Assembly (NCBI GenBank): GCA_016222825.1
Contig: JACRQF010000019.1
Coordinates: 186,001-250,000, forward strand
Length of the DNA: 64,000 nt
Direction: 5' to 3'
Source: Verrucomicrobiota bacterium
Lineage (GTDB): Bacteria; Verrucomicrobiota; Verrucomicrobiia; CAIQCK01
The position numbers were made by a program, and so were the translations under genes. Shown in pieces: positions 37,828-50,384 of this stretch; the stretch's first letter is position 1; the number at the start of each line of letters is the position of its first letter. The notes beneath the pieces were generated by a model, which saw only the letters and a program-made list of their open reading frames with translations, was not told the origin of the DNA and did no database searches.

Positions 37828-40800
37828 ATGCCAACGCCTTGGAAACAACTCGGCAAGCCGCTCTTCATCGCCGGTATCGGCGCACTTCTCGCTCTTTACT
37901 GGCTCGGCTGGATCAAAAACGTCGGCCTGTTCGACATTGCCGTGCTCATCGCGCTGGTTGGCGGCTACAAGATTTTCGGCGACGCCGTCTGGGGGCTGCT
38001 CCACGGCAAAATCTCCAGCGACCTCGCCATCGCCATCGCGGCGTGCGCGGCGCTCGCCATCGGCCAATACTTCGCCGCTGCCGAGGTCATCTTCATCATG
38101 CTCGTCGGCGGCTGGCTCGAGGAACTCGCCGTGGACCGCACCCGCGGTGCGATCGAGAAGCTTATCCGCCTCGTGCCGCGTTCGGCGCACGTCCGGCGCG
38201 GCGACGAGATCGTGGAAGTCGCCATAACCGACATTCGACCCGGCGACGTCGTCGTGGTGCGGCCCGGCGAACGCATCGCGGTGGATGGCGAGGTAACGGA
38301 GGGTTCGTCTTCGGTGGATCAGAGCGCCATCACCGGCGAGAGCATTCCCGCCAGCAAAGCGGGTGGGGACAAGGTCTTCGCCGGCACCATCAACCAAGTC
38401 GGCTCGCTCGACGTGCGTGTGACCGCCGTCGGCGAGGACTCGACGCTCGGCAAGATCATTCATCTCGTCGAGGAAGCGGAGGAGAAGAAAGCCGCCGTCC
38501 ATCAACGCGCCGACCGCTGGGCCGTCTGGTTCGTGCCGGCGGTGCTGGCGCTCGGCCTGGCGACGTTTTTCTTCTCCAGCGGCGATTTCAACGCGCGGTT
38601 GATTCGCGCCGTCAGCGTGCTCATCGTTGCCTGCCCGTGCGCGCTGGTGCTGGCCACACCCACGGGCATCGCCGCCGGCATCGGCCGCCTCGCGCGCGCC
38701 GGTGTATTGGTGAAGGGCGGCGTTTACCTCGAACATCTCGCCCGCGTCCGCGCCGTCGTCTTCGACAAGACCGGCACGCTTACCGCCGGCAAGCCGCGCG
38801 TCGTCGAGGTGGTCGCATTCGCCGGCGACGAGCGCGAGATGTTTGCGCTTGCGGCGACGGCAGAGTCGCACTCCGAGCATCCGCTGGCACATGTCATCGT
38901 TGCCGAGGCGAAACGGCGCGGCATTACGTTGGGTCGGGCGGAGCGTTTTGAAGCCGCGCCCGGTCTCGGCATGGTTGCTGAGTGCAACGGCTCGCGCGTC
39001 ACTATCGGCAATCGCCAGCTTCTCCAGCAGCGCAGCATCGCGATTCCAGCGGAAGCCGAGGCGCGAATCACTCGACTGGAGGAAGTCGGCTACACCGTCG
39101 TGTTGGTCGCCACCAACGGTGCGGTTGCCGGTGCCATCGCCGTCATGGACACACCGCGTGATGACGCGAAAGACACCGTCGCGCAACTTCGCGCGCTCGG
39201 CATTGAGCACGTGCTCCTCCTGACCGGCGACAACGAGCGCGTTGGCCGTGCTGTCGGCGAGCGCGTCGGCATTAGCGAAGTTGGTGCGGGACTGCTGCCG
39301 GCAGACAAAGTCAGCCGCATTCGCGCGCTTCAGCAGCGCGGCCTGCCGACGGTGATGTGCGGCGACGGTATCAACGATGCGCCGTCGCTCGCGGCGGCGG
39401 ACGTGGGCGTGGCGTTGCACGGACTGGGGGCTGACATCACGCTCGAAGCCGCCGATGTCGTGCTGATGAGCGACGACCTGAAGAAGATTCCGTTCGCCAT
39501 CGAGTTTTGCCGGCGCGTCGTCGCGACCATCCATCGCAACATCTGGTGGTTCGCCATCGGCTTCAACGGCTCGGCGGTCTTCGCGGCGTCGCAGGGTTGG
39601 ATCGGGCCGATTGGCGCGGCGATCACGCATCAGATCGCGTCGCTGCTCGTCGTCTGCAATTCGCTGCGCCTGCTCTGGAGTGGCGAGTGGGCGGCGAAGC
39701 TCGCGGTGGCGTGGAAGCGGGAAGCGGAAGAGATGAAGCAGTTCGGCGCTTCTGTCACAAAGCTCTGCCGCGAGCATCCGCGCGGTGCGCGCTCGACGGC
39801 GGCGGCTGTGGTCGTGATCGGCTGGCTGGCGACGGGGCTGACGGTGATTCAACCGGACGAGGTCGGTGTCTGGCTGCATTTCGGAAAGAAGCAGGCGGTG
39901 CTGGGGCCGGGACTGCATTGCGTCTGGCCGTGGCCGTGCGATGAAGTGCCGCGCGTGTTGCCGGGCCGCGTGCAGCGCGTGCAGGTCGGTCTGCGCAGTG
40001 TGGAGCCGGCGGCGGCGAAACCGTGGTGGGAAACTTGGACGAAGCCGGCGCAGACAGGAGTGTCTGCGCCACCGGAGCCAACGGCTTACGAGTGGAACTA
40101 CGAGCACAAGGGCGGCTTCCAGTTCGTGCCGGAGGAGGCGACGACGGTCGTTGGGGACGAGAATCTCGTGGCGGTGACGATGGCGATTCATTTCGTGGAC
40201 AAGGATCCGGTGGCGTATCTGTTCGCGACGGTGGATCCCCCATCGCTGGTGAAGGCGCTCGCGGAGGCGGCGCTGCGCGACGCGGCGGGGCGCGCGACGG
40301 CGGAGGCGATGCTGACGACCGGCCGCGCGGCGACCGAACGGACTGTGATGGAGTATTTGCAGAAGCGGCTCGACGAATGCGGCGCGGGCATCGAGGTGCA
40401 GAGCGTGCGGTTGCAGGACGTGCATCCGCCGATCGAACTGGTGGACGCCTACCGCGACGTGGCGAGCGCGGTCGAGGAGAAGAGCCGCGTCATCAACGAA
40501 GCGGAAGGTTATCGCAACGAGCAGTTGCCGCTGGCGCGTGGCACGGCGACGAACACTGTGCTGGCCGCCACCGCCGCGCGTGACGCGAAGATCGCCGACA
40601 GCACCGGCAAGTCGGAGCGGTTCGCGGTGACGGTGAAGCCACTCGGCGCGCAGCGGGCGGCCCACGCGGAGCGGCTCTATCTGGAGTTGATGGAGGAGAT
40701 TTTGCCAAGCCAACAGCTTTACGTCGTGGACCGCCGCGGCAAGGGGCAGATTTACCTGCTGAACGACCGGCTCAAGGCGCTGTTGGGGCCAGCCGCGCAG

Positions 40801-40842
40801 TCCGCGCCCGCGCCCGCGCGTCCGACGATTCCCGAGGAGTAA
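37828..40842 (+). CDS. P1B-type ATPase fused to HflK-like SPFH domain
   Basis: One 1004-residue frame holds two usually separate proteins. Residues 1-640 are a complete heavy-metal P-type ATPase: TGES actuator (AITGESIPAS), membrane CPC (269-271) for soft metal binding, phosphorylation Asp313 in DKTGTLT, His351 in SEHPLA, TGDNERVG and GDGINDAP; no N-terminal metal-binding domain. Residues about 655-675 are a new helix (AAAVVVIGWLATGLTVI), followed by an SPFH domain from QPDEVGVWLHFGKKQAVLGPG to about 960, matching HflK. The last ATPase helix pair ends NSLRLLWSG, the natural C-terminus. A palindromic repeat (40047-40070) lies inside the HflK part. hflC follows after one base. Confidence 0.9.
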   Translation: MPTPWKQLGKPLFIAGIGALLALYWLGWIKNVGLFDIAVLIALVGGYKIFGDAVWGLLHGKISSDLAIAIAACAALAIGQYFAAAEVIFIMLVGGWLEELAVDRTRGAIEKLIRLVPRSAHVRRGDEIVEVAITDIRPGDVVVVRPGERIAVDGEVTEGSSSVDQSAITGESIPASKAGGDKVFAGTINQVGSLDVRVTAVGEDSTLGKIIHLVEEAEEKKAAVHQRADRWAVWFVPAVLALGLATFFFSSGDFNARLIRAVSVLIVACPCALVLATPTGIAAGIGRLARAGVLVKGGVYLEHLARVRAVVFDKTGTLTAGKPRVVEVVAFAGDEREMFALAATAESHSEHPLAHVIVAEAKRRGITLGRAERFEAAPGLGMVAECNGSRVTIGNRQLLQQRSIAIPAEAEARITRLEEVGYTVVLVATNGAVAGAIAVMDTPRDDAKDTVAQLRALGIEHVLLLTGDNERVGRAVGERVGISEVGAGLLPADKVSRIRALQQRGLPTVMCGDGINDAPSLAAADVGVALHGLGADITLEAADVVLMSDDLKKIPFAIEFCRRVVATIHRNIWWFAIGFNGSAVFAASQGWIGPIGAAITHQIASLLVVCNSLRLLWSGEWAAKLAVAWKREAEEMKQFGASVTKLCREHPRGARSTAAAVVVIGWLATGLTVIQPDEVGVWLHFGKKQAVLGPGLHCVWPWPCDEVPRVLPGRVQRVQVGLRSVEPAAAKPWWETWTKPAQTGVSAPPEPTAYEWNYEHKGGFQFVPEEATTVVGDENLVAVTMAIHFVDKDPVAYLFATVDPPSLVKALAEAALRDAAGRATAEAMLTTGRAATERTVMEYLQKRLDECGAGIEVQSVRLQDVHPPIELVDAYRDVASAVEEKSRVINEAEGYRNEQLPLARGTATNTVLAATAARDAKIADSTGKSERFAVTVKPLGAQRAAHAERLYLELMEEILPSQQLYVVDRRGKGQIYLLNDRLKALLGPAAQSAPAPARPTIPEE
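40047..40070. repeat. perfect 10-bp palindrome inside the HflK domain
   Basis: GGCGCAGACA and TGTCTGCGCC form a perfect stem with a 4-base loop. It encodes PAQTGVSAPPE between the strands VQVGLRSVEPAA and EWNYEHKGG of the SPFH domain, at about residues 740-748. The core resembles the palindrome at 4674-4698. Confidence 0.7.
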
Positions 40843-40843
40843 C

Positions 40844-41761
40844 ATGAACCCGAAACCCAAACTTCTCTCCTGTCTGGCTATCGCCGTCGTGGCGGCAGCG
40901 ATCTGGACATGCTTCTTCACGGTGCGCGAGAGCGAGAGCGTCATCGTCACGTTGTTCGGCAAGCCGGTGCGCACGCTCGACGACGCCGGGCTGGCGTTGA
41001 AATGGCCGTGGGAGGGCGTGCTGCGTTTCGACAAGCGCGTGCGCCTCTATGATGCGACGCCTTCGGAGTTCCTGACGCAGGACAAAAAGAACATCGTCGT
41101 CCAGAGCTTCGTAGCGTGGAAGATTGCCCAGCCACGGGAGTTCCTGCTCGCGGTGCGCGACACGCTCGGCGCGGAGATGCGGTTGCGCGACGTGCTCTGG
41201 AGCGAGCTTAGTTCCAAGCTCGGCGTGACGCCGCTGGCGGCGTTGCTCTCGACCAAGCCGGAAGAGATGAAGCTCGACAAGCTCTCGGAGGAAATTCGTG
41301 ACAAGTGCCGCGCGACTGCGCTGGCGCGTTACGGCATCGAGGTGGTGGATGTGCGGATCAAACGGCTCGGCTTCCCCGCGCAGAACCGCGACGCCGTATT
41401 CGAGCGGATGCGCGCGGAACGGCAGCGCGAGGCGAAACAGTTCCGCGCTGAGGGCCAGGAGGAGGCGATGAAGATCCGCGCCGAGGCCGACAAGCAGAAG
41501 GCGACGATCCTCGCCGAGGCGAACCGCAAGGCCGAGACGCTCAAGGGCGAGGGCGACGCGAAGGCGATTGAGATTTACAACTCCGCCATCGCGCTCGACC
41601 CGGCGTTCTACAAGTTCCTGCGGATGCTGGACGCGTATCGCGGCACGCTGAAGGAGAACACGACGTTGGTGCTCGGCAGCGAAAGCGACTTCCTCAAGCT
41701 GCTGACGGAAGGCGCGCAGGCGCTCGGCAATCGGCCGGCGGCGCACAAGGAGGCGAAGTGA
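40844..41761 (+). CDS. hflC: HflC-like SPFH membrane protein
   Basis: The 305-residue protein has an N-terminal helix (SCLAIAVVAAAIWTCFF) and the HflC core: FTVRESESVIVTLFGKPVRTLDDAG, FDKRVRLYDATPSEFLTQDKKNIVV. A long heptad-rich coiled coil follows (AERQREAKQFRAEGQEEAMKI...), typical for HflC. In E. coli HflK and HflC build a cage around the FtsH protease. Here the partner HflK is the C-terminal part of the preceding P-ATPase fusion, separated by one base, so co-expression is certain. No ftsH is in the window. Confidence 0.93.
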   Translation: MNPKPKLLSCLAIAVVAAAIWTCFFTVRESESVIVTLFGKPVRTLDDAGLALKWPWEGVLRFDKRVRLYDATPSEFLTQDKKNIVVQSFVAWKIAQPREFLLAVRDTLGAEMRLRDVLWSELSSKLGVTPLAALLSTKPEEMKLDKLSEEIRDKCRATALARYGIEVVDVRIKRLGFPAQNRDAVFERMRAERQREAKQFRAEGQEEAMKIRAEADKQKATILAEANRKAETLKGEGDAKAIEIYNSAIALDPAFYKFLRMLDAYRGTLKENTTLVLGSESDFLKLLTEGAQALGNRPAAHKEAK

Positions 41762-41999
41762 GACCATTTGCTTTCCTCCGCTGTCTGGAGATTTTGAGCG
41801 AGCTGACCGGCAAGACCGAATACCGGCAGGTGGGGCTTGATCGCATGGGGCGAACATCTTTAGTGGGACGAGCGCGAGGACAAGGCCGTGGCGACGCTTT
41901 TCGACCACGATGGGCGATGTGCTGTTGTATGCGCTGCTCCGGCTCGACCTGGCGTTGAACAAGACTTCAGTCTCGCTGTCGGACGTGCTCGTTGATTAA
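41762..41999 (+). pseudogene. possible decayed gene between hflC and the GH10 gene
   Basis: The first frame reads RPFAFLRCLEILSELTGKTEYRQVGLDR. A second frame gives AVATLFDHDG, and a third reads LLYALLRLDLALNKTSVSLSDVLVD before a stop at 41997. The pieces have coding-like composition but lie in different frames, as if indels broke a short gene. I do not recognise a family. It could equally be untranslated spacer. Confidence 0.3.
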
Positions 42000-42009
42000 C
42001 TACAGGCCA

Positions 42010-43359
42010 ATGAAAGCGAGGAACTACCCTGCCGTTATCGCCGTGTCAGCCGTCCTGCTGGTTGCTCCCCCGGCGTGGACAGCCGATGTGCCCGAAATCT
42101 ATCGCAGACTCTGGAGCGATCCCGCCGTGGCCGGACGCATCGAGCGCGACATCGAGAAGCACCGCAAAGGCGACGCGGTCATCGAGGTCATTGGCAACGA
42201 TGGCAGACCTCTGGCCAACGCGACGGTGGAGGTGCGGCAGCAGACACACGAGTTCCTGTTCGGCTGCAACCTCTTCGTCCTCGACCAGCTCGCCACGCCG
42301 GAACTCAACCGCAAATACGAGGCGGCCTTCACCAACCTCTTCAACTTCGCCACGCTGCCGTTCTACTGGCGCGAGTTGGAGCCAGAGCAAGGCAAGCCGC
42401 GCTTCGCCGAGGACTCACCGCGCATCTGGCGCCGTCCGCCACCGGATCGGCTCGTGAAGTGGTGCAAGGCCAACGGCATCACGCCCAAAGGCCACGCGCT
42501 GATGTATGCGAAGAACAAGTTCATGCCCGATTGGACTGCGCACGACGATCCGAAAACGTTTTTACAGCAAAGCACGAAGCACATGGCCGGGATCGCCGCA
42601 CGCTACAAGCGCGACATCCCGATCTGGGACGCGGTGAACGAAGAGCTTCCGCGCCGCGTCCACTTCAAGGAATGGCACGCCGTGCCGGACGATTACCTCG
42701 CGTGGTGTTTCCAGGAAGCGGGCCGGCTGTTCCCGAAGGACGTGAAGCTGCTCATTAATGACGGCCAACTTCAGGCTCACTACGGCACCTACGACTATAT
42801 GGCGCTGGTGAAGGACCTGCTGCAGCGCGGCGTGCGCGTCGAAGGCATCGGTATGCAGTTCCACGTCAGCCGGGATTCCGTGCTCAGCGGCAAGCTCTAC
42901 GTGCCCGCCCATCTTCAGGACGTTTACAGTCAACTCGGCCGGTTCGGCCTGCCGCTCTACATCACCGAGATTACCATCCCCGGCGTCGGCGAGAACGGCG
43001 CGGAGCTTCAAGCCGCCATCGTCGCGAACATCTACCGCCTCTGGTTCAGCACACCCGCGATGGCGGGCGTGACGTGGTGGAACCTCGGCGACGGCACCGC
43101 CTACGAGAACGAGAACAAGGCGCTCGGCGGCCTGCTCGACAAAGACATGAATCCCAAGCCCGCCTATCGCGCGCTCGACCGGCTCATCAACCACGACTGG
43201 AAGACACGCCTGACGCTGAAGACCGACACGAATGGCCGCGCGCGTTTCCGCGGCTTCTGCGGAACGTATGGCTACACGGCCGCAGTCGGCAGCACGAAGA
43301 CGACGGGCGTGTTCCGTCTTCAACGCAATGCGAAGAACCAGATCGCCATCAAACCATGA
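42010..43359 (+). CDS. secreted GH10 endo-xylanase-like enzyme
   Basis: The 449-residue product starts MKARNYPAVIAVSAVLLVAPPAWTAD, a signal peptide. GH10 landmarks are KGHALMYAK, IWDAVNEELP with acid/base Glu211, GIGMQFH, and YITEITIPG with nucleophile Glu320; WWNLGDG closes the active site. GH10 enzymes cleave beta-1,4-xylan or related glycans. After the barrel, a short beta domain (LTLKTDTNGRARFRGFCG) resembles the C-terminal module of similar verrucomicrobial proteins. The frame also opens from a TTG at 41992. Its stop overlaps the next start (ATGA). Confidence 0.9.
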   Translation: MKARNYPAVIAVSAVLLVAPPAWTADVPEIYRRLWSDPAVAGRIERDIEKHRKGDAVIEVIGNDGRPLANATVEVRQQTHEFLFGCNLFVLDQLATPELNRKYEAAFTNLFNFATLPFYWRELEPEQGKPRFAEDSPRIWRRPPPDRLVKWCKANGITPKGHALMYAKNKFMPDWTAHDDPKTFLQQSTKHMAGIAARYKRDIPIWDAVNEELPRRVHFKEWHAVPDDYLAWCFQEAGRLFPKDVKLLINDGQLQAHYGTYDYMALVKDLLQRGVRVEGIGMQFHVSRDSVLSGKLYVPAHLQDVYSQLGRFGLPLYITEITIPGVGENGAELQAAIVANIYRLWFSTPAMAGVTWWNLGDGTAYENENKALGGLLDKDMNPKPAYRALDRLINHDWKTRLTLKTDTNGRARFRGFCGTYGYTAAVGSTKTTGVFRLQRNAKNQIAIKP

Positions 43360-45503
43360 AGCTTGATTGCCTGAGCCAACTGTCCGCGATTGCACTTGCC
43401 GTCTGCGTCAACGCCGCTGAACCGGTCGTGCCGCCGCCACCGCGCGAGGTGCTCGACCTGACATTGCAGCCGCCCGTCGTCATCACGGCGCCCGGCCCGG
43501 AGTTTCAGGACGAGGCGCGGCACGGTGCGATGATCGTCGGCATGGACCGCACGCCCAAGGGGCGCATCTGGGGTTGCTGGACGGGCAACGGCGACAAACC
43601 GGACGCCTACTTCCTCCTCGCCACAAGCGACGATGGCGGCACGACGTGGTCGAAGCCGCGCCTCGCCGTCGGCGCGCCGGACCCGACCGGCAAGCCGCAG
43701 CGGCGTGCGCTCGTCGGCAATGTCTGGACCGACCCGCTAGGCCGCGTCTGGCTGTTCTTTGACCAGAGCTTGGTCGGGTTCTTCGATGGTCGCGCTGGAA
43801 GCTGGTATATGCGCTGCGACAATCCCGACGCCGCCGAGCCGGTCTGGTCGAAGCCTGTTCGCATCGCCGACGGCTGCACGCTCTGCAAGCCGACCGTGCT
43901 CAAGAACGGCGAATGGCTCCTGCCGGTTGCGCTCTGGACGCGCGACAAGATCAAGCCGCTTACGTTCCGCGACGCTTACCACGACCTCGACCCGAACCGC
44001 ATGGCGCACGTCTTCGTCTCGACTGATCAGGGCAGGACGTGGACGCGGCGCGGCGGCGTGGCGTTCCCGGAGAGCGACTTCGATGAGCACATGATCGTGG
44101 AGTTGCGCGACGGCCGGCTCTGGATGCTCGCACGCACCAAGTATGGCATGGCGGAGAGTTATTCCCCCGACCAAGGCCGCACGTGGACCGAGCCGAAACC
44201 GGCGGAGATCAAGAACGTCAGCGCGCGGTTCTTCATTCGGCGGCTCGCGTCGGGCCGGCTGTTGCTCGTGAAAAACGGGCCGACCACAGAGCGGCTGCCG
44301 AAGCGGTCGCACATGTCGGCGTTCCTCTCCGACGACGACGGCAAGACTTGGCGCGGCGGCCTGCTGCTCGACGAGCGCGCGAGCGTGTCCTATCCGGACG
44401 GCTTCCAAGCGCCCGACGGACTCATCCACATTCTCTACGACTGGAATCGCCACACTGACGCGGAAATCCTCATGGCGAAGTTTCGCGAGGAGGACGTGCT
44501 AGTCGGCAAGTTCGTCTCGCCCGATGCCAAGCCGCGCTTCCTCGTCAACAAGGCGCTCGGCCCGAAGCCGAAGCCCGCGCCGGTTCGCATCATCCTCGAT
44601 ACCGACATGTCGGGCGATTGTGACGATGCCGGCACGCTGGCGCTCCTACACGCGCTGGCCGACCGCGGCGAGTGCGAACTGCTCGCCGTCGTCACCAATC
44701 GCAAGGACAAGACCAACGCCTCGGCCGCCGCCGTGGACGTCATCAACACCTATTACGGCCGGCCGAACATCCCCATCGGCACCGACAAAGTCGGCCCAAC
44801 CGATCTCCAGCGCACCAGCGCCTACACGCTTGCGTTGCGCGACGAGTTCCCGCACGACGGCAAGCCCGACGACCAGATGCCCGACGCGCTCGACGTGTAT
44901 CGCCGCGTGCTCACAGCGCAGCCCGACGACAGCGTGACGATTTGCAGCGTCGGCGCGTTCTCCAACCTCGCCGAACTCTGGCGTCGCGAGCCGGCGCTGG
45001 TGCTGACAAAGGTTCACCGGCTCGTCGTGATGGGCGGCGAGTTCCCGACCAGCAAGCGGCCGGAGACGAACATCCGCACGCACCGCGAGGCCGCGCGTGT
45101 CGTCGCAGCGGAGTGGCCCACCGAGCTTGTCTGGCACGGCTTCGAGGTCGGCAACGTCCTCATCACCGGCGCTGCATTGAAACAGACGCCGAAAAACAAC
45201 CCCGTCCGCCGCGCCTATGAGCTGAAACCGTTCGGCAAACGCCCCGCCATCGAAGGCGGCCAGCCGAGTTGGGACCAAGGCGCGGCGCTCTACGCCGTGC
45301 GCGGCCCGGAGCCGGAGTTCTGGCGAGCCGTCCGCGGCGGCCGTGTGGTCGTGGACGAGGAAGGCGTTACGACATGGGAACAAGGCCCCATCACCCGCCA
45401 CTACTACGCGAAGATCAAAGGCGATCCGGCGAAGCTCGCCGCCGCCATCGAATCGTTGATGATCCTGCCACCGAAGCAACATTCGGCGTCACAACACAAG
45501 TAA
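43356..45503 (+). CDS. sialidase-like propeller fused to nucleoside hydrolase
   Basis: The 715-residue protein has a short signal peptide (SQLSAIALAVCVNAAEP). Residues about 25-395 form a six-bladed sialidase-like propeller with four Asp boxes (S-D-D-G-G-T-T-W, S-T-D-Q-G-R-T-W, S-P-D-Q-G-R-T-W, S-D-D-D-G-K-T-W). Residues about 410-710 are an inosine-uridine nucleoside hydrolase: calcium/ribose motif LDTDMSGDCDDAGTLALL starting near 415, then GAFSNLAEL and LVVMGGEF. The join is KPKPAPVRIILDTD with no stop or frameshift. It is coupled to the GH10 gene and ends seven bases before the next start. Its substrate is unclear; sialidase relatives also cut other sugar acids. Confidence 0.85.
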   Translation: MKLDCLSQLSAIALAVCVNAAEPVVPPPPREVLDLTLQPPVVITAPGPEFQDEARHGAMIVGMDRTPKGRIWGCWTGNGDKPDAYFLLATSDDGGTTWSKPRLAVGAPDPTGKPQRRALVGNVWTDPLGRVWLFFDQSLVGFFDGRAGSWYMRCDNPDAAEPVWSKPVRIADGCTLCKPTVLKNGEWLLPVALWTRDKIKPLTFRDAYHDLDPNRMAHVFVSTDQGRTWTRRGGVAFPESDFDEHMIVELRDGRLWMLARTKYGMAESYSPDQGRTWTEPKPAEIKNVSARFFIRRLASGRLLLVKNGPTTERLPKRSHMSAFLSDDDGKTWRGGLLLDERASVSYPDGFQAPDGLIHILYDWNRHTDAEILMAKFREEDVLVGKFVSPDAKPRFLVNKALGPKPKPAPVRIILDTDMSGDCDDAGTLALLHALADRGECELLAVVTNRKDKTNASAAAVDVINTYYGRPNIPIGTDKVGPTDLQRTSAYTLALRDEFPHDGKPDDQMPDALDVYRRVLTAQPDDSVTICSVGAFSNLAELWRREPALVLTKVHRLVVMGGEFPTSKRPETNIRTHREAARVVAAEWPTELVWHGFEVGNVLITGAALKQTPKNNPVRRAYELKPFGKRPAIEGGQPSWDQGAALYAVRGPEPEFWRAVRGGRVVVDEEGVTTWEQGPITRHYYAKIKGDPAKLAAAIESLMILPPKQHSASQHK

Positions 45504-45510
45504 GGCCACC

Positions 45511-48500
45511 ATGAAAGTCCTGCCCGTTGTCTTCCTCGCGCTTGTTGCCGCCGTCACCGCAGCCGACGACAACGCCGGCTTTGCAAACTGCGACTTCGAG
45601 CAAGGCGTGGCGGGCTGGGGGGTGTGGTATTCCGACGACCGCAACGCGGTGATGACGCGCTACCCGTATTCCGCCGACAGCGCGGTGGCACATGGCGGGC
45701 GGCAGTCACTGAAGATCGTCGCGCCGGACGAGAACGGCTGCGCGTTCGTGTCGCGCAGTTCGACGGCGATGAAACCTGGCGCGCGCTATGAGGTGGGCTA
45801 CTGGTTCCGCAAGTCGGCGGAGCTTGATGAGCGCGCGTTTCATGTGCGGTTCAACTTCCGCCCCGTCGACAAGAAGGCCGACTGGAAGATGAAGTCGGTC
45901 GAGTTGTTGCCGACGCGCCGCAAGACGGAAGGCGAGTGGCAATATCGCAGCGGCTACGTGCGCGTGCCGAAGGACGCCGGCTCGCCGGTTTCCCTCGGCC
46001 TTTATCTAAAGGAAGCGCACGGGACGATCTGGATAGACGACGTGCAGATTCGCGAGGTCAAGGTCGGAGAGAACCTCATCGCGGACCTGTGGGTGTATGA
46101 CCCGTATCGCGTGGAGTTGGGCGGTGCGCCGCTGAAGAAGTTCGCCGCGCTGAAGGAACGCAACGACCCGATCCTCGCCCGCGCCGCGCGTTACAACGAG
46201 ACGCTGGTGAAATCCGCGTTCGTGAAGGAGGACGTGCGCCGCTGCCTGCGCATCGGCGCGGCCAAGCTCGGCGCGCGGATGGAGCAGGCGGAGGAGAAAC
46301 TGGCTAAGCTTTATCGCGCTTACGGCGAGGCGTTCCTCGACTTGAAGAACGTCGCGAAAGCCGGGGCGTTCGACACGCAAGCCACCGCGTTGAACGCCGA
46401 ACTCGACGCGCTCGGCAGCGACGCGAAACGCGCCATTGCCGACGCCACGGAACGTTGTCGCGCCTCCGGGTTGCGCTGGCGTCCGCCGCCCGCTCCATTG
46501 AAAGCCGCGCTGCCGGCGATCAGCGGTGATGGCCGAGTCAACCAGATCATCTACGCCAACCGCAGTTCGTCGGAGTTTCAGGAGTTGGAGAAGCCGCTTT
46601 GCTTTGATCCAGTCCACAGCACCAGTGTCGGCGGTCCGCGCAGCGACAAGCCGGGCCACTACGATTGGTCGAGCTACGACAAGCAGTGGGAGCAAATCCG
46701 CGCGTCCGGGATTCCGAAGAAGAGCTGCCTGCTGCTGTTCATGACGCTGCACGACGGCAGTTGGACGCCAAAGTGGCTGCTCGACCGCGCGAAGGCCGAC
46801 CCGGAAATCCTGCACGTCGTGCCGCCAGGAGACAAACTGTCGAAGCGTTCCACGGGCACCGCGCAACTCAACTGGTGGCATCCTGCGGTGCGCGACTACG
46901 CTCGCGAGATCGTCGGCGACATGGGCCGCACGTTCCGCTCGCGCGACGACTACCTGTTCTATGAGTTCCAGTGGGAAGCCTACGGACCTTACGTCGCAAC
47001 CGAGAAGGGCCAGCGCGAGGTTGGCTACGGCAAATACGCCGAGACGGATTTCCGCGCGTGGCTGAAGAAGAAATACGGCGACATCGCCGTGCTGAACCGC
47101 CGCTGGGGCGCGAGCTATGCGTCATTCAACGACATCCAGCCGCCGCCCGACCGCAACGTCGTCGAGCGCCGACGCGCGGAGCCGCTCGCGGCGGAGTGGG
47201 AAGCGTGGCGCGAGGCGAGCTATGAGGATTGGTGCCGGCTGATTTATCGCGCGTGGAAGAAGAGCGATCCGGCCAAACCTGTCTTTGCCGACAACAGCAA
47301 CCTGTTCCGCAGCTTCAACATGCCAAACCTCGTCGACACGTGCGACATGATGGGGTTCCACAACAGCGGGCGGACGTTCATGCCGACGCTGATGTTGCTC
47401 AACAGCATCAGCCGCCACAACGGCCACAAGCCGATCGCGCAATACGAAAACTTCTGGGGCGTGCAGGAGGACCACGACCGCATGTATGAAGAACTGCCGC
47501 GCCGCCACGGCACGCAGAAGCATATCTTCCGGATGACGGCTTGGAACACGTTCCTGCAGGTCTGGTGGTATTCCTACACGGCGGCGGAGTATCTCACTCA
47601 CTACGACGGCAACTACTTTGACCCGGCTTACGCGCTGACCACGCTGCGCTATCGCACCGCCGCGTTGCCGGTCTATTTCCAGAAGCTCAAGCGGCTCCAA
47701 CGCACGTTGCTCGACAGCCGTCTCGTCGCGCCACGCCTCTGCGTGCTCGCGCCGACCGCCTCGATGCGGAACGGCTTCCCGGCGGGCGCGTCGCAGGCGG
47801 AAATCTACGACCTCTTCTGGGAACTCTACCCGCGCAACCACCACTTCGATCTGGTTCACGAGGAATACCTGCTCGACGGCCGCGCGCGGCTCGATGATTT
47901 CGACGTGCTGGTGTTGCCATACGCGCCCTACCTCGACGAGCGGCTGCAAAGCGCAATCGCGAAATGGCTCAACGCCAAGCCGCGCCTGCTCGTCAGTATC
48001 GGCCCGTTCGGCATCTACAACGAACTCGGCCGCGATTCGGCAATGCTTCTCAACGCCACGCTCCACGGCCGCGCGCTCAAACTGGAGTTCCCTGATAAGA
48101 GACGATGGGAATGGGCGGACGGTTCCGCCAAGGCAGGCGACACACTCGAAGCCCAAGCAGGCCCGTCGAAAGTGGTCGTGCTGCTCAAGCCGCTCGCGCA
48201 GTTGAAGACCGCCCGCGGGTTTGCCGACAAGCTGATCGCGCAGATCGAAGCCGCCACCGACCGCGCGGCCTGCGACGACAAGAACGCGTTCGAGCTGGTG
48301 CTGCGCCAGCAAGGCGGCACGCGCTACCTCTGCGTGCTCAATCCAGACGCAGACGCGGCGGCGGAGAGCACGGTGCGCGTGAAGGGCACGTTCAAGTCCG
48401 TCACCGACCTCGACTACGCGAGCGGCTTCCCCGTGGCAGCGCGCGTCGAGGCGGGCCACACCGTCTTTCCGCTGCGACTGGAACCGGGCGAGGCGACCCT

Positions 48501-48519
48501 TATCCGGTTAAGCCCGTAA
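45511..48519 (+). CDS. secreted GH42-like (beta-galactosidase-like) enzyme
   Basis: The 1002-residue protein has a signal peptide (KVLPVVFLALVAAVTAAD), a carbohydrate-binding-like jelly roll (about 25-180), a helical segment (about 205-330) and a clan-A barrel (about 345-680). The barrel shows DDYLFYEFQWE, FRAWLKKKYGDIAVLNRRWG and AQYENFWG, where E in YENF is a candidate nucleophile. A trimerisation-like Rossmann domain (DVLVLPYAPYLDERL) and a C-terminal beta domain follow. It is the third gene of the hydrolase cluster. The protein at 7553-9841 is a shorter relative. Confidence 0.78.
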   Translation: MKVLPVVFLALVAAVTAADDNAGFANCDFEQGVAGWGVWYSDDRNAVMTRYPYSADSAVAHGGRQSLKIVAPDENGCAFVSRSSTAMKPGARYEVGYWFRKSAELDERAFHVRFNFRPVDKKADWKMKSVELLPTRRKTEGEWQYRSGYVRVPKDAGSPVSLGLYLKEAHGTIWIDDVQIREVKVGENLIADLWVYDPYRVELGGAPLKKFAALKERNDPILARAARYNETLVKSAFVKEDVRRCLRIGAAKLGARMEQAEEKLAKLYRAYGEAFLDLKNVAKAGAFDTQATALNAELDALGSDAKRAIADATERCRASGLRWRPPPAPLKAALPAISGDGRVNQIIYANRSSSEFQELEKPLCFDPVHSTSVGGPRSDKPGHYDWSSYDKQWEQIRASGIPKKSCLLLFMTLHDGSWTPKWLLDRAKADPEILHVVPPGDKLSKRSTGTAQLNWWHPAVRDYAREIVGDMGRTFRSRDDYLFYEFQWEAYGPYVATEKGQREVGYGKYAETDFRAWLKKKYGDIAVLNRRWGASYASFNDIQPPPDRNVVERRRAEPLAAEWEAWREASYEDWCRLIYRAWKKSDPAKPVFADNSNLFRSFNMPNLVDTCDMMGFHNSGRTFMPTLMLLNSISRHNGHKPIAQYENFWGVQEDHDRMYEELPRRHGTQKHIFRMTAWNTFLQVWWYSYTAAEYLTHYDGNYFDPAYALTTLRYRTAALPVYFQKLKRLQRTLLDSRLVAPRLCVLAPTASMRNGFPAGASQAEIYDLFWELYPRNHHFDLVHEEYLLDGRARLDDFDVLVLPYAPYLDERLQSAIAKWLNAKPRLLVSIGPFGIYNELGRDSAMLLNATLHGRALKLEFPDKRRWEWADGSAKAGDTLEAQAGPSKVVVLLKPLAQLKTARGFADKLIAQIEAATDRAACDDKNAFELVLRQQGGTRYLCVLNPDADAAAESTVRVKGTFKSVTDLDYASGFPVAARVEAGHTVFPLRLEPGEATLIRLSP

Positions 48520-48644: not shown

Positions 48645-50384
48645 ATGAGAATGTGGCTTGGTATTTGGCTGACAGCGGCGGCGATGGCGGCGCAAGTGTG
48701 CGCTGCGTCCGCCGCCCGCGCCGCAGAACCGTGGACGCAGGCGGAACTGCGCCGGTTCGCGCGCGACCTCGGCGAGTATGTCACCGCTCATCACATCCGA
48801 CGAGATCCAAAGTCACCGCAGGATGGCATGGTTCACAAGTGGTATCGCCCGCGCGACGGACGCTGGGTGCTGGACACCCGCCGCAACATGCTCGGCGACG
48901 GCGCATGGTTCGCCGACGCACTCTGCCTCTACTACCGCGCCACGCGCGAGCCGTGGGCGCTCGGCGTCCTGCGGAAACATCCACTCCCGTTCTATCAACG
49001 GGTCCTGTTGGGCAGCGACCAGCTTTTCGGCGTCAGCAAAGGCATCTGCCCGCTCTGGTGGGGCGACGGAGCCGCCGTGACGCGCGACGGCGGCGTGGTC
49101 AAGGACTTCCCGAAACCGCCGCGCATGACCAGCAACGCGCTGGCGCTGGACCTCGCCACGATGCTGATGAGCGCCGGCCTGCTGTGCCCGGACGCAGAAG
49201 CCGGCGGCGCCGCCGCCTGTCTGCTCCGCGGCGACCGCGCGTGCTACGACGACCCGACAGTGCCGCTCGCGCTCGGCGTTGCCGTCGCCATGCTCGCCAA
49301 CGACGAGATGCTCCAGACGCGCTGTCTGCCGCTGATACCGTGGCAGAGCTACGACGGCCCCGGCGGCGCGCTGGCCGGCGCGCTTTGCCACAACCGCACC
49401 AACAGCGTCTCTGCCGCGTTGGAGGAGACGATGCTCAACTACCGGATGCACGTCCTCGCGCAGCCGTCGCAGCCACTCGGCGCGGACTTCGCCAAGAGTT
49501 TCATCGCGGCGGTCTTCACGTCGCTGCGGCTTGCCGATCTCTGGCACGACAACGGTCCGCGCCAGCCGGGCCTGACGCCGTTCGATGATGCCGCGCTCAC
49601 CGTGGGCGAAAAGCTCGCGTTCTACCGCTCCGACAAACCCGCGCTGTCGCCCGGCTCGCGTCACGGCCCGATGCTGCTTTGCGGCGCGGCCATCGCGCTG
49701 CAACTGATGGAGGCTTTTTCCGCCGCGTGGGAAAGCTGGTATCGCGAGCACCATGCTGCCGACGCGCGCGTGAGCGGGAGGTTCGCCGATCTGCCGGTGC
49801 TCGCCAAGAGCGGCCTCGTCGAGATGGCATGGACCACCTCAAGCCTGCTCGTCCGCGCGCGCGGGCCGTTGAAGTTGTTGCTGGCCTCCGCGACGCCCGG
49901 TGACGACGCGAGCGCGACGGTGACGCTCGATGCCGCCGGTCGCGCAACGGCAGTCAGCGGTCGTGGTGAGGCGTTGCGAATCGTCGCCGCGCCGCAACCG
50001 GACGGCCGCGTGGAGCTGGAACTTCCCTTCACGATGGCGAAGTTGCAGAAGCGCTGGCTGAACGCCGTCGAGGACAGCCGCTGGATCGCGCGCTTGGACG
50101 ACGGCAAGCCGAGCGGCCTGCTGTTCCTGAGCCGACCGGAGACGGTGCGCGCCCGGCTGGCGCTGGAGCTATCCGACGGCCTCCGCTTCTGGCAGAAAGT
50201 CTTCAACGACAAAGGCCATGTGCCGGCCGGCATCAGCATTGGGAAATCACCGGCGGGCGCCGACGCCGAACTCAGCGACGCAGCCGGCTACGCGTTCCTC
50301 ATCGCCGCGATTGCCGAATACACCGTCTGGCTCAACGGCGAGCGTGATTGGGATCTGGCGCTGAAGGTCCAGGCAAAACCGTAG
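48645..50384 (+). CDS. exported protein of unknown function, helical toroid-like
   Basis: The 579-residue product has a signal peptide (WLGIWLTAAAMAAQVCAASAARAA). The following 350 residues are rich in amphipathic helices (LDTRRNMLGDGAWFADALCLYYRAT, PRMTSNALALDLATMLMSAGL, ETMLNYRMHVLAQ) like an alpha/alpha barrel. A beta-rich C-terminal part (LKLLLASATPGDD, RVELELPF) follows. That layout is shared by polysaccharide lyases and heparinase-type enzymes, but no signature motif proves it. It ends the hydrolase cluster and overlaps uvrC, converging, by 53 bases. Confidence 0.6.
   Translation: MRMWLGIWLTAAAMAAQVCAASAARAAEPWTQAELRRFARDLGEYVTAHHIRRDPKSPQDGMVHKWYRPRDGRWVLDTRRNMLGDGAWFADALCLYYRATREPWALGVLRKHPLPFYQRVLLGSDQLFGVSKGICPLWWGDGAAVTRDGGVVKDFPKPPRMTSNALALDLATMLMSAGLLCPDAEAGGAAACLLRGDRACYDDPTVPLALGVAVAMLANDEMLQTRCLPLIPWQSYDGPGGALAGALCHNRTNSVSAALEETMLNYRMHVLAQPSQPLGADFAKSFIAAVFTSLRLADLWHDNGPRQPGLTPFDDAALTVGEKLAFYRSDKPALSPGSRHGPMLLCGAAIALQLMEAFSAAWESWYREHHAADARVSGRFADLPVLAKSGLVEMAWTTSSLLVRARGPLKLLLASATPGDDASATVTLDAAGRATAVSGRGEALRIVAAPQPDGRVELELPFTMAKLQKRWLNAVEDSRWIARLDDGKPSGLLFLSRPETVRARLALELSDGLRFWQKVFNDKGHVPAGISIGKSPAGADAELSDAAGYAFLIAAIAEYTVWLNGERDWDLALKVQAKP

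What the first reader, a model, noticed from the sequence alone, without database searches (positions are those of the whole stretch)
43356..45503. Sialidase-like propeller joined to a nucleoside hydrolase
Four Asp boxes of a sialidase propeller are followed, in one frame, by a whole nucleoside hydrolase (DTDMSGDCDDAG, GAFSNLAEL, VVMGGEF). I know of no standard pathway that needs both. The gene sits coupled between GH10 and GH42-like genes. It might act on a nucleotide-activated or nucleoside-containing sugar such as CMP-sialic acid, or the hydrolase may have changed to a sugar N-glycosidase.
Basis: partly seen in the sequence, partly recalled or inferred. Interest (0 to 1): 0.62.

Follow-up and report, generated by a model that had tools for sequence, protein, structure and literature searches.

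The report
Sialidase-like propeller fused to riboside hydrolase
A probably secreted bacterial protein joins a sialidase-type propeller to a nucleoside-hydrolase-type domain; relatives of the second domain are joined in other species to sulfatases and plant-polysaccharide enzymes, which suggests an unrecognised way of cutting ribose-type sugars out of larger molecules.

Summary
Window 43356-45503 (+) is one open 715-aa frame: a GH33-like six-bladed propeller (four Asp boxes) joined to a complete nucleoside-hydrolase (NH) fold. It is no assembly accident: three further assemblies carry the same fusion with the same linker, and both halves are under strong purifying selection. The metal/furanose residues of the NH half are kept. 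Base-recognition residues are not those of known groups, and the aspartate motif is DxDxxxDxDD, containing the variant reported for HopQ1. The larger finding is that this NH subfamily is a shuffled module in Verrucomicrobiota. Its relatives are fused to sulfatases (6 cases, NH parts from two separate lineages), glucuronoyl-esterase-like, PL11, alpha-galactosidase, esterase and CN-hydrolase domains. Four of the six sulfatase-NH genes lie beside ribose-type importers and/or ribokinases; none of the four propeller-NH genes does. Best reading: an exported two-step enzyme whose propeller removes an acidic cap and whose NH half frees a pentofuranose, probably ribose. CMP-sialic acid is unlikely. Catalysis is inferred, not shown. 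An NH-like module in a carbohydrate-binding protein (Sde_0182) is already known, so I rate this a new variant of a known kind.

The parts
43356..45503 (+). whole fusion gene, 715 aa plus stop
   Evidence: translation; Pfam; AF2 model of the full length pLDDT 90.3, pTM 0.72
43356..43418 (+). probable signal peptide, aa 1-21 (judged by eye, no predictor run)
   Evidence: hydrophobic stretch ending in NAA-E; pLDDT under 50 for aa 1-30
43497..44510 (+). six-bladed sialidase-type propeller, aa 48-385
   Evidence: BNR_2; best structural match M. viridifaciens sialidase 1w8o Z 33.3, 302 aligned
43626..44351 (+). span of the four Asp boxes (43626, 44019, 44163, 44328)
44085..44393 (+). sialidase-type catalytic residues E244, R260, R317, Y346
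   Evidence: each invariant in 46 of 46 aligned relatives; aligned to the catalytic-type positions of Hz136 (6mnj)
44511..44585 (+). linker, aa 386-410
   Evidence: conserved in all four fusion genes
44586..45467 (+). nucleoside-hydrolase-fold domain, aa 411-704
   Evidence: PF01156; AF2 model pLDDT 95.7; 2mas Z 29.9 over 282 residues
44598..44627 (+). metal-binding aspartate motif DTDMSGDCDD (D415, D417, D421, D423, D424)
   Evidence: 60-62 of 63 relatives keep each Asp; alignment to 1mas
45063..45071 (+). E570-T-N572, ribose-binding pair
   Evidence: E in 45 and N in 57 of 63; aligned to E-F-N of 1mas
45270..45275 (+). W639-D640; the Asp is the last metal ligand, Trp replaces the usual His
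   Evidence: D in 61 and W in 47 of 63; aligned to H-D of 1mas
41992..43359 (+). upstream GH10-type gene, overlapping the start of the fusion gene
   Evidence: 85% identical orthologue precedes a stand-alone NH gene in G001
45511..48519 (+). downstream GH42-like gene
   Evidence: 86% orthologue follows the fusion in G002

Best explanation
The gene makes an exported bifunctional hydrolase. Shown: both folds are complete, their catalytic-type residues are kept, both halves are under purifying selection, and the NH module belongs to a subfamily that is repeatedly fused to glycan-active enzymes. Inferred: the propeller removes an acidic group or sugar from a ribofuranoside-type substrate; the NH half then binds the exposed furanose through its metal-bound hydroxyls, hydrolyses the bond and frees a pentose, most likely D-ribose, for uptake. 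The sulfatase in the sister architecture would play the propeller's part. Whether the bond cut is N- or O-glycosidic is open.
For: NH fold Z 29.9 with 2mas. Metal and furanose residues conserved. The window's NH half is 63-92% identical to its stand-alone and sulfatase-fused neighbours in the tree, and the four SULF-NH rows G100/G016/G269/G106 form the neighbouring clade. In 73 NH regions the ribokinase-like family is, with LacI/GntR regulators, the most widespread neighbour (11 genomes each); a seed search finds ribokinase in 15 of 73 NH regions and 0 of 76 control regions, RbsC-like in 6 and 0 (Fisher p 1e-5 and 0.012). Five of six tested kinases pass the TIGR02152 ribokinase cutoff. G106 has one gene row A-type NH, ribokinase, RbsB, RbsA, RbsC, SULF-NH; four of six SULF-NH genes lie with such genes. 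The same sulfatase scaffold (56-75% identity) carries NH domains of two lineages (one clade rejected, p-AU 5e-5). A periplasmic NH acting on nucleosides is known in Pseudomonas aeruginosa (PMC5437708, passages).
Against: No activity was measured. Ribose genes go mainly with the other NH clade: 11 of 22 A-only regions, 2 of 46 B-only regions, and 0 of the 4 SIA-NH regions. None lies near the window gene; the ribokinase of G000 is on another contig. Free sulfatase genes are not enriched (13 of 73 against 10 of 76, p 0.5). The kinase seeds came from the NH regions themselves. The NH domain lacks the usual His before the last Asp, and HopQ1, which shares the variant Asp motif, showed no activity on standard nucleosides (PMC3608555).
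Confidence: 0.45

Rival explanations
1. The NH half is an O-furanosidase (ribo-, arabino- or other pentofuranose) that trims plant or microbial polysaccharides, so it is a glycoside hydrolase with NH fold.
For: Relatives are fused to PL11, glucuronoyl-esterase-like, alpha-galactosidase, esterase and sulfatase domains; the window gene overlaps a GH10 gene and is followed by a GH42-like gene; DUF2961-type genes (named by me from sequence, no domain call) recur beside NH genes in 4 genomes; His of known NHs is replaced.
Against: No glycoside hydrolase of this fold is known to me; ribokinase and ribose import point to ribose, which is rare in plant walls (the rarity is recalled).
Confidence: 0.25
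2. The NH half only binds furanoses and works like a carbohydrate-binding module.
For: [quoted passage not shown] XopQ binds ADP-ribose without cleaving nucleosides (PMC8910321).
Against: Metal and furanose residues are near-invariant in 63 rows and related stand-alone NH genes sit in ribose operons.
Confidence: 0.15
3. Fusion without substrate coupling: two secreted scavenging enzymes that share one signal peptide.
For: In G001 and G003 the NH gene stands alone with its own signal-like N terminus behind GH10 genes; propeller relatives elsewhere carry a second propeller or other domains.
Against: The sulfatase scaffold carries NH domains of two lineages; the propeller fusion occurs in two genera plus AS06 and is kept under selection.
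Confidence: 0.12
4. The protein acts on CMP-sialic acid or a similar sugar nucleotide.
For: GH33-type fold and residues beside an NH fold.
Against: No NanA over cutoff in 9 genomes; no sialic-acid genes recognised among recurrent neighbours; sister fusions use sulfatases.
Confidence: 0.03

Closest known systems
Inosine-uridine nucleoside hydrolases (CfIUNH 1mas/2mas, E. coli RihB 3b9x; Pfam PF01156)
   Same: Whole fold (Z 28-30), first metal Asp residues, E-x-N pair and last metal Asp.
   Different: Two extra residues in the Asp motif, Trp for His241, loss of the Asn that precedes E-x-N, no V/I-His dipeptide evident in the loop after strand 3; exported and fused.
HopQ1/XopQ type nucleoside-hydrolase-like proteins
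   Same: DXXXDXDD aspartate motif as described for HopQ1 (PMC3608555, passages).
   Different: NCBIfam XopQ model scores 19 of 500 bits; here a probably exported enzyme with glycan-active partners.
Sde_0182 of Saccharophagus degradans
   Same: NH-like domain within a multidomain carbohydrate-related protein (PMC8910321, passages).
   Different: Partners there are carbohydrate-binding domains; the Pfam scan of the window protein lists PF01156 and not the Sde182-type family (that family's existence is recalled).
GH33 sialidases and GH181 (Amuc_1547)
   Same: Six-bladed propeller, Z 33.3 with 1w8o; best PDB profile hits are the sialidase entries 9eob and 8axt (8axt is AmGH181 by PMC10067855).
   Different: Keeps Tyr346 where GH181 has Gln (PMC10067855, passages); about 16-23% identity to the listed solved sialidases.
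P. aeruginosa Nuh
   Same: Periplasmic NH that hydrolyses nucleosides outside the inner membrane (PMC5437708, passages).
   Different: Substrates are adenosine and inosine. Its sequence was not compared here.

Membership tests
nucleoside hydrolase superfamily (PF01156) | Pfam gathering score | tested here: met
   69.2 against 34.2 bits
nucleoside hydrolase superfamily (PF01156) | alpha/beta NH fold | tested here: met
   2mas Z 29.9, rmsd 2.9, 282 aligned
nucleoside hydrolase superfamily (PF01156) | DxDxxxDD fingerprint | tested here: not met
   the sequence reads DTDMSGDCDD; four Asp align to those of 1mas with a two-residue insert
nucleoside hydrolase superfamily (PF01156) | distal metal-binding Asp and E-x-N pair | tested here: met
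   D640, E570, N572
nucleoside hydrolase superfamily (PF01156) | His (group I) or Trp (group II) before the last Asp | tested here: met
   Trp as in group II, 47 of 63 rows; group definition PMC8910321 section 2.3
nucleoside hydrolase superfamily (PF01156) | hydrolysis of nucleosides | not testable with these tools
   needs an assay
GH33 sialidase | six-bladed propeller with Asp boxes | tested here: met
GH33 sialidase | nucleophile pair Tyr/Glu and second and third Arg | tested here: met
   E244, R260, R317, Y346 invariant in 46 of 46, aligned to Hz136
GH33 sialidase | first Arg and acid-base Asp | tested here: inconclusive
   R55 in 39 of 46 with 6 gaps, D80 in 31 of 46; no printed alignment to a solved enzyme covers them
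GH33 sialidase | release of sialic acid | not testable with these tools
   needs an assay; nanA not over cutoff in 9 genomes
GH181 | His-Gln in place of the catalytic Tyr | tested here: not met
   Tyr346 in 46 of 46
XopQ/HopQ1 | NCBIfam XopQ score | tested here: not met
   19 of 500 bits
XopQ/HopQ1 | DXXXDXDD motif | tested here: met
   D417 to D424; motif definition

The most novel reading that the evidence does not exclude
NH-fold domains with the DxDxxxDxDD motif are a new family of glycan-active ribo- or pentofuranosidases that evolution plugs onto cap-removing enzymes (sulfatases, sialidase-type propellers, esterases) and lyases. They attack an unrecognised class of acid-capped ribofuranosides. 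Knowing their substrate would also suggest what HopQ1/XopQ-type proteins recognise.
Probability: 0.25. Interest if true: 0.85.

Novelty: new variant of a known kind. Interest (0 to 1): 0.6.

Why it matters
Nucleoside hydrolases are usually described as single-domain salvage enzymes. Here an NH subfamily is a recurrent module of multi-enzyme proteins in Verrucomicrobiota and lies, in part, inside complete ribose operons. The sulfatase-NH genes in those operons make the substrate question directly testable, and the answer could bear on NH proteins with the HopQ1-type motif, whose substrate is unknown according to PMC3608555.

Tried and rejected
Assembly or frame error at 44570-44600: rejected.

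The impression that the fusion is widespread: many one search matches span over 2 kb, but one search showed these to be two propellers in a row. Only 3 of 79 loci there (L038, L039, L040) hold both halves, and L039 and L040 are the same contigs as G006 and G002 by length.

Link between free sulfatase genes and NH genes: not above background. Ribose linkage for the window's own gene: not found.

Some large frames proved not to be fusions: L166, L173 and L174 have N-terminal extensions that I judged spurious or unrelated by eye; L171's NH part aligns for only its first 125 residues and its Pfam scan lists no NH family; no gene was called over the NH hit in L168 and L172. RNA families, tandem repeats and promoters were not searched.

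Papers: ten searches showed no report of a propeller-NH or sulfatase-NH fusion. The library is open-access only and matches words, not meanings. For the papers named only in those listings I saw titles and abstract starts.
Full report
WHAT IS THERE. The window lies at G000:C10:186001-250000 of a 6.6 Mb genome. The gene 43356-45503 (+) encodes 715 aa without an internal stop. Pfam finds BNR_2 at 81-359 and IU_nuc_hydro at 412-670, both above their cutoffs. An AlphaFold2 model of the full length has mean pLDDT 90.3 and pTM 0.72, so the domains are sure and their mutual placement is not. Modelled alone, the NH half has pLDDT 95.7. It matches the nucleoside hydrolase 2mas at Z 29.9 over 282 residues (Foldseek agrees). 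The propeller matches M. viridifaciens sialidase at Z 33.3 over 302 residues, and both folds appear in the Foldseek list of the full model.

RESIDUES. In the propeller, E244, R260, R317 and Y346 are invariant in 46 of 46 relatives. They align with the corresponding residues of the sialidase Hz136. D362 stands where Hz136 has Glu. The first Arg and the acid-base Asp could not be placed with certainty. In the NH half, D415, D417, D421, D423 and D424 are each kept in 60-62 of 63 non-redundant relatives, E570 in 45, N572 in 57, W639 in 47 and D640 in 61. Against 1mas the alignment pairs D415/D417 and D423/D424 with the DxD and DD of its motif, E570/N572 with E-x-N, and W639-D640 with H-D. The residue numbers of the Crithidia enzyme and the role of the Asn before E-x-N are recalled. 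The motif DxDxxxDxDD is not the classic DxDxxxDD. It contains DXXXDXDD, which the HopQ1 paper says was not seen in bona fide NHs (PMC3608555, passages). Trp before the last Asp is the group II state (PMC8910321, section 2.3).

DISTRIBUTION OF THE EXACT FUSION. Of 93 genomes searched among relatives, 3 hold both halves in one frame: G000, G002 and G006, the last cut by a contig end. Of 79 loci from the species-genome scan, 3 do: L038 (called AS06 here), L039 and L040, the latter two being G006 and G002 again. So four assemblies are known. That scan used short peptides and finds only close relatives. Both halves evolve under strong constraint against G002 and G006; the program returned no value for AS06. 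In G001 a GH10 orthologue (85%) is followed directly by the NH half alone (93% identity to the window's) with its own signal-like N terminus, and G003 is similar. The tree places G001 just outside the fusion genes with weak support (82/29), so gain and loss of the propeller cannot be told apart. G006's NH part is incomplete and was left out of the tree. The nearest propeller relatives elsewhere carry a second propeller or other domains.

THE NH MODULE IS SHUFFLED. In the phylum search, 49 of 387 genomes have an NH match at E up to 1e-25. I fetched 20 stretches, chosen mainly for long open frames, and, with those, read the NH frames. Ten were scanned with Pfam: sulfatase-NH (three: G016, G100, G052), NH-CN_hydrolase (NH score 30.2, below its cutoff of 34.2), NH-glucuronoyl-esterase-like, NH-F5/8C (that partner at 26.9 of 28.2 bits), NH-carboxylesterase, NH-DUF6807-PL11, an alpha-galactosidase protein whose NH part aligns for only its first 125 residues (the scan lists no NH family there), and tandem NH-NH with laminin G. 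Three more sulfatase-NH genes (G028, G269, G106) were assigned by 56-75% identity of their sulfatase parts to the others; all six keep C-T-P-T-R. The NH parts of the six fall in two places of a 63-row tree. Holding them together is rejected (p-AU 4.8e-5; the group was named after seeing the tree). G028 and G269 share 72% in the sulfatase part but 45% in the NH part. The same sulfatase scaffold has thus carried NH domains of two lineages, which argues for a functional link.

NEIGHBOURS. I called genes with a GC3-based script of my own in 73 NH regions (663 genes); some calls are spurious. Apart from the component that holds the NH genes themselves, the most widespread families were ribokinase-like kinases and LacI/GntR regulators (11 genomes each), then GRP-type sugar porters and RbsB-like proteins (6 each). 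Seeds from these found ribokinase in 15 of 73 NH regions and in 0 of 76 propeller-relative regions without the fusion (p 1e-5). The seeds came from the NH regions, so the test leans towards them. Five of six tested kinases pass the TIGR02152 cutoff; one misses narrowly (280.7 of 299.65). The transporter parts resemble several pentose systems and pass no single cutoff. Split by clade, ribose-type genes occur in 11 of 22 A-only, 2 of 46 B-only and 4 of 5 mixed regions. The window is clade B. Four of six sulfatase-NH genes (L123, L125, L159, L160) are with ribose genes; none of the four propeller-NH regions is. In G106 the order is A-type NH, ribokinase, RbsB, RbsA, RbsC, sulfatase-NH. Free sulfatase genes are not enriched.

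HOW IT PROBABLY WORKS. Exported enzyme, acidic cap removed by the propeller, then furanosyl bond cut in the metal site of the NH half and pentose taken up. The fold, the residues, the selection and the recurrence of the module are shown. The cap, the bond and the ribose are inferred, the ribose from relatives rather than from this locus. CMP-sialic acid is unlikely: the sialic-acid lyase NanA is not over cutoff in any of 9 genomes.

COMPARISON AND NOVELTY. The review PMC8910321 (outline, passages and section 2.3 read) mentions an NH-like domain behind carbohydrate-binding domains in Sde_0182, inactive on nucleosides and thought to bind furanose. A periplasmic NH is known in P. aeruginosa (PMC5437708, passages). 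What I did not find in the ten searches named in Tried and rejected is the fusion to sialidase-type or sulfatase enzymes. I therefore rate it a new variant of a known kind.

Noticed in passing
window 37828-40842 (+): A P-type ATPase joined in one frame to a Band_7/SPFH (HflK-like) domain, followed by a second Band_7 gene at 40844-41761. Matches run over nearly the whole length in G001, G003 and G005 (90, 85, 73%) and less closely in G028 (45%); most other relatives match the ATPase part alone.
   Followed up: partly
L160 7445-15626 (G106): A compact gene row with NH, ribokinase, RbsB, RbsA, RbsC and sulfatase-NH: the best place to test the enzyme family.
   Followed up: partly
L162, L163, L164: Tandem NH-NH proteins, one with Ig and laminin G domains; in L163 and L164 the Asp motif of the second copy looks degenerate.
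   Followed up: no
L178, L179, L180, L181: Propeller relatives of about 1300-1470 aa open frame (L179 cut by the contig end) whose propeller is followed by a conserved stretch containing GR.LFVDD.LIE; the second domain was not identified.
   Followed up: no
window 48645-50384 (+): A 579-aa protein downstream of the cluster without any Pfam or NCBIfam match.
   Followed up: no
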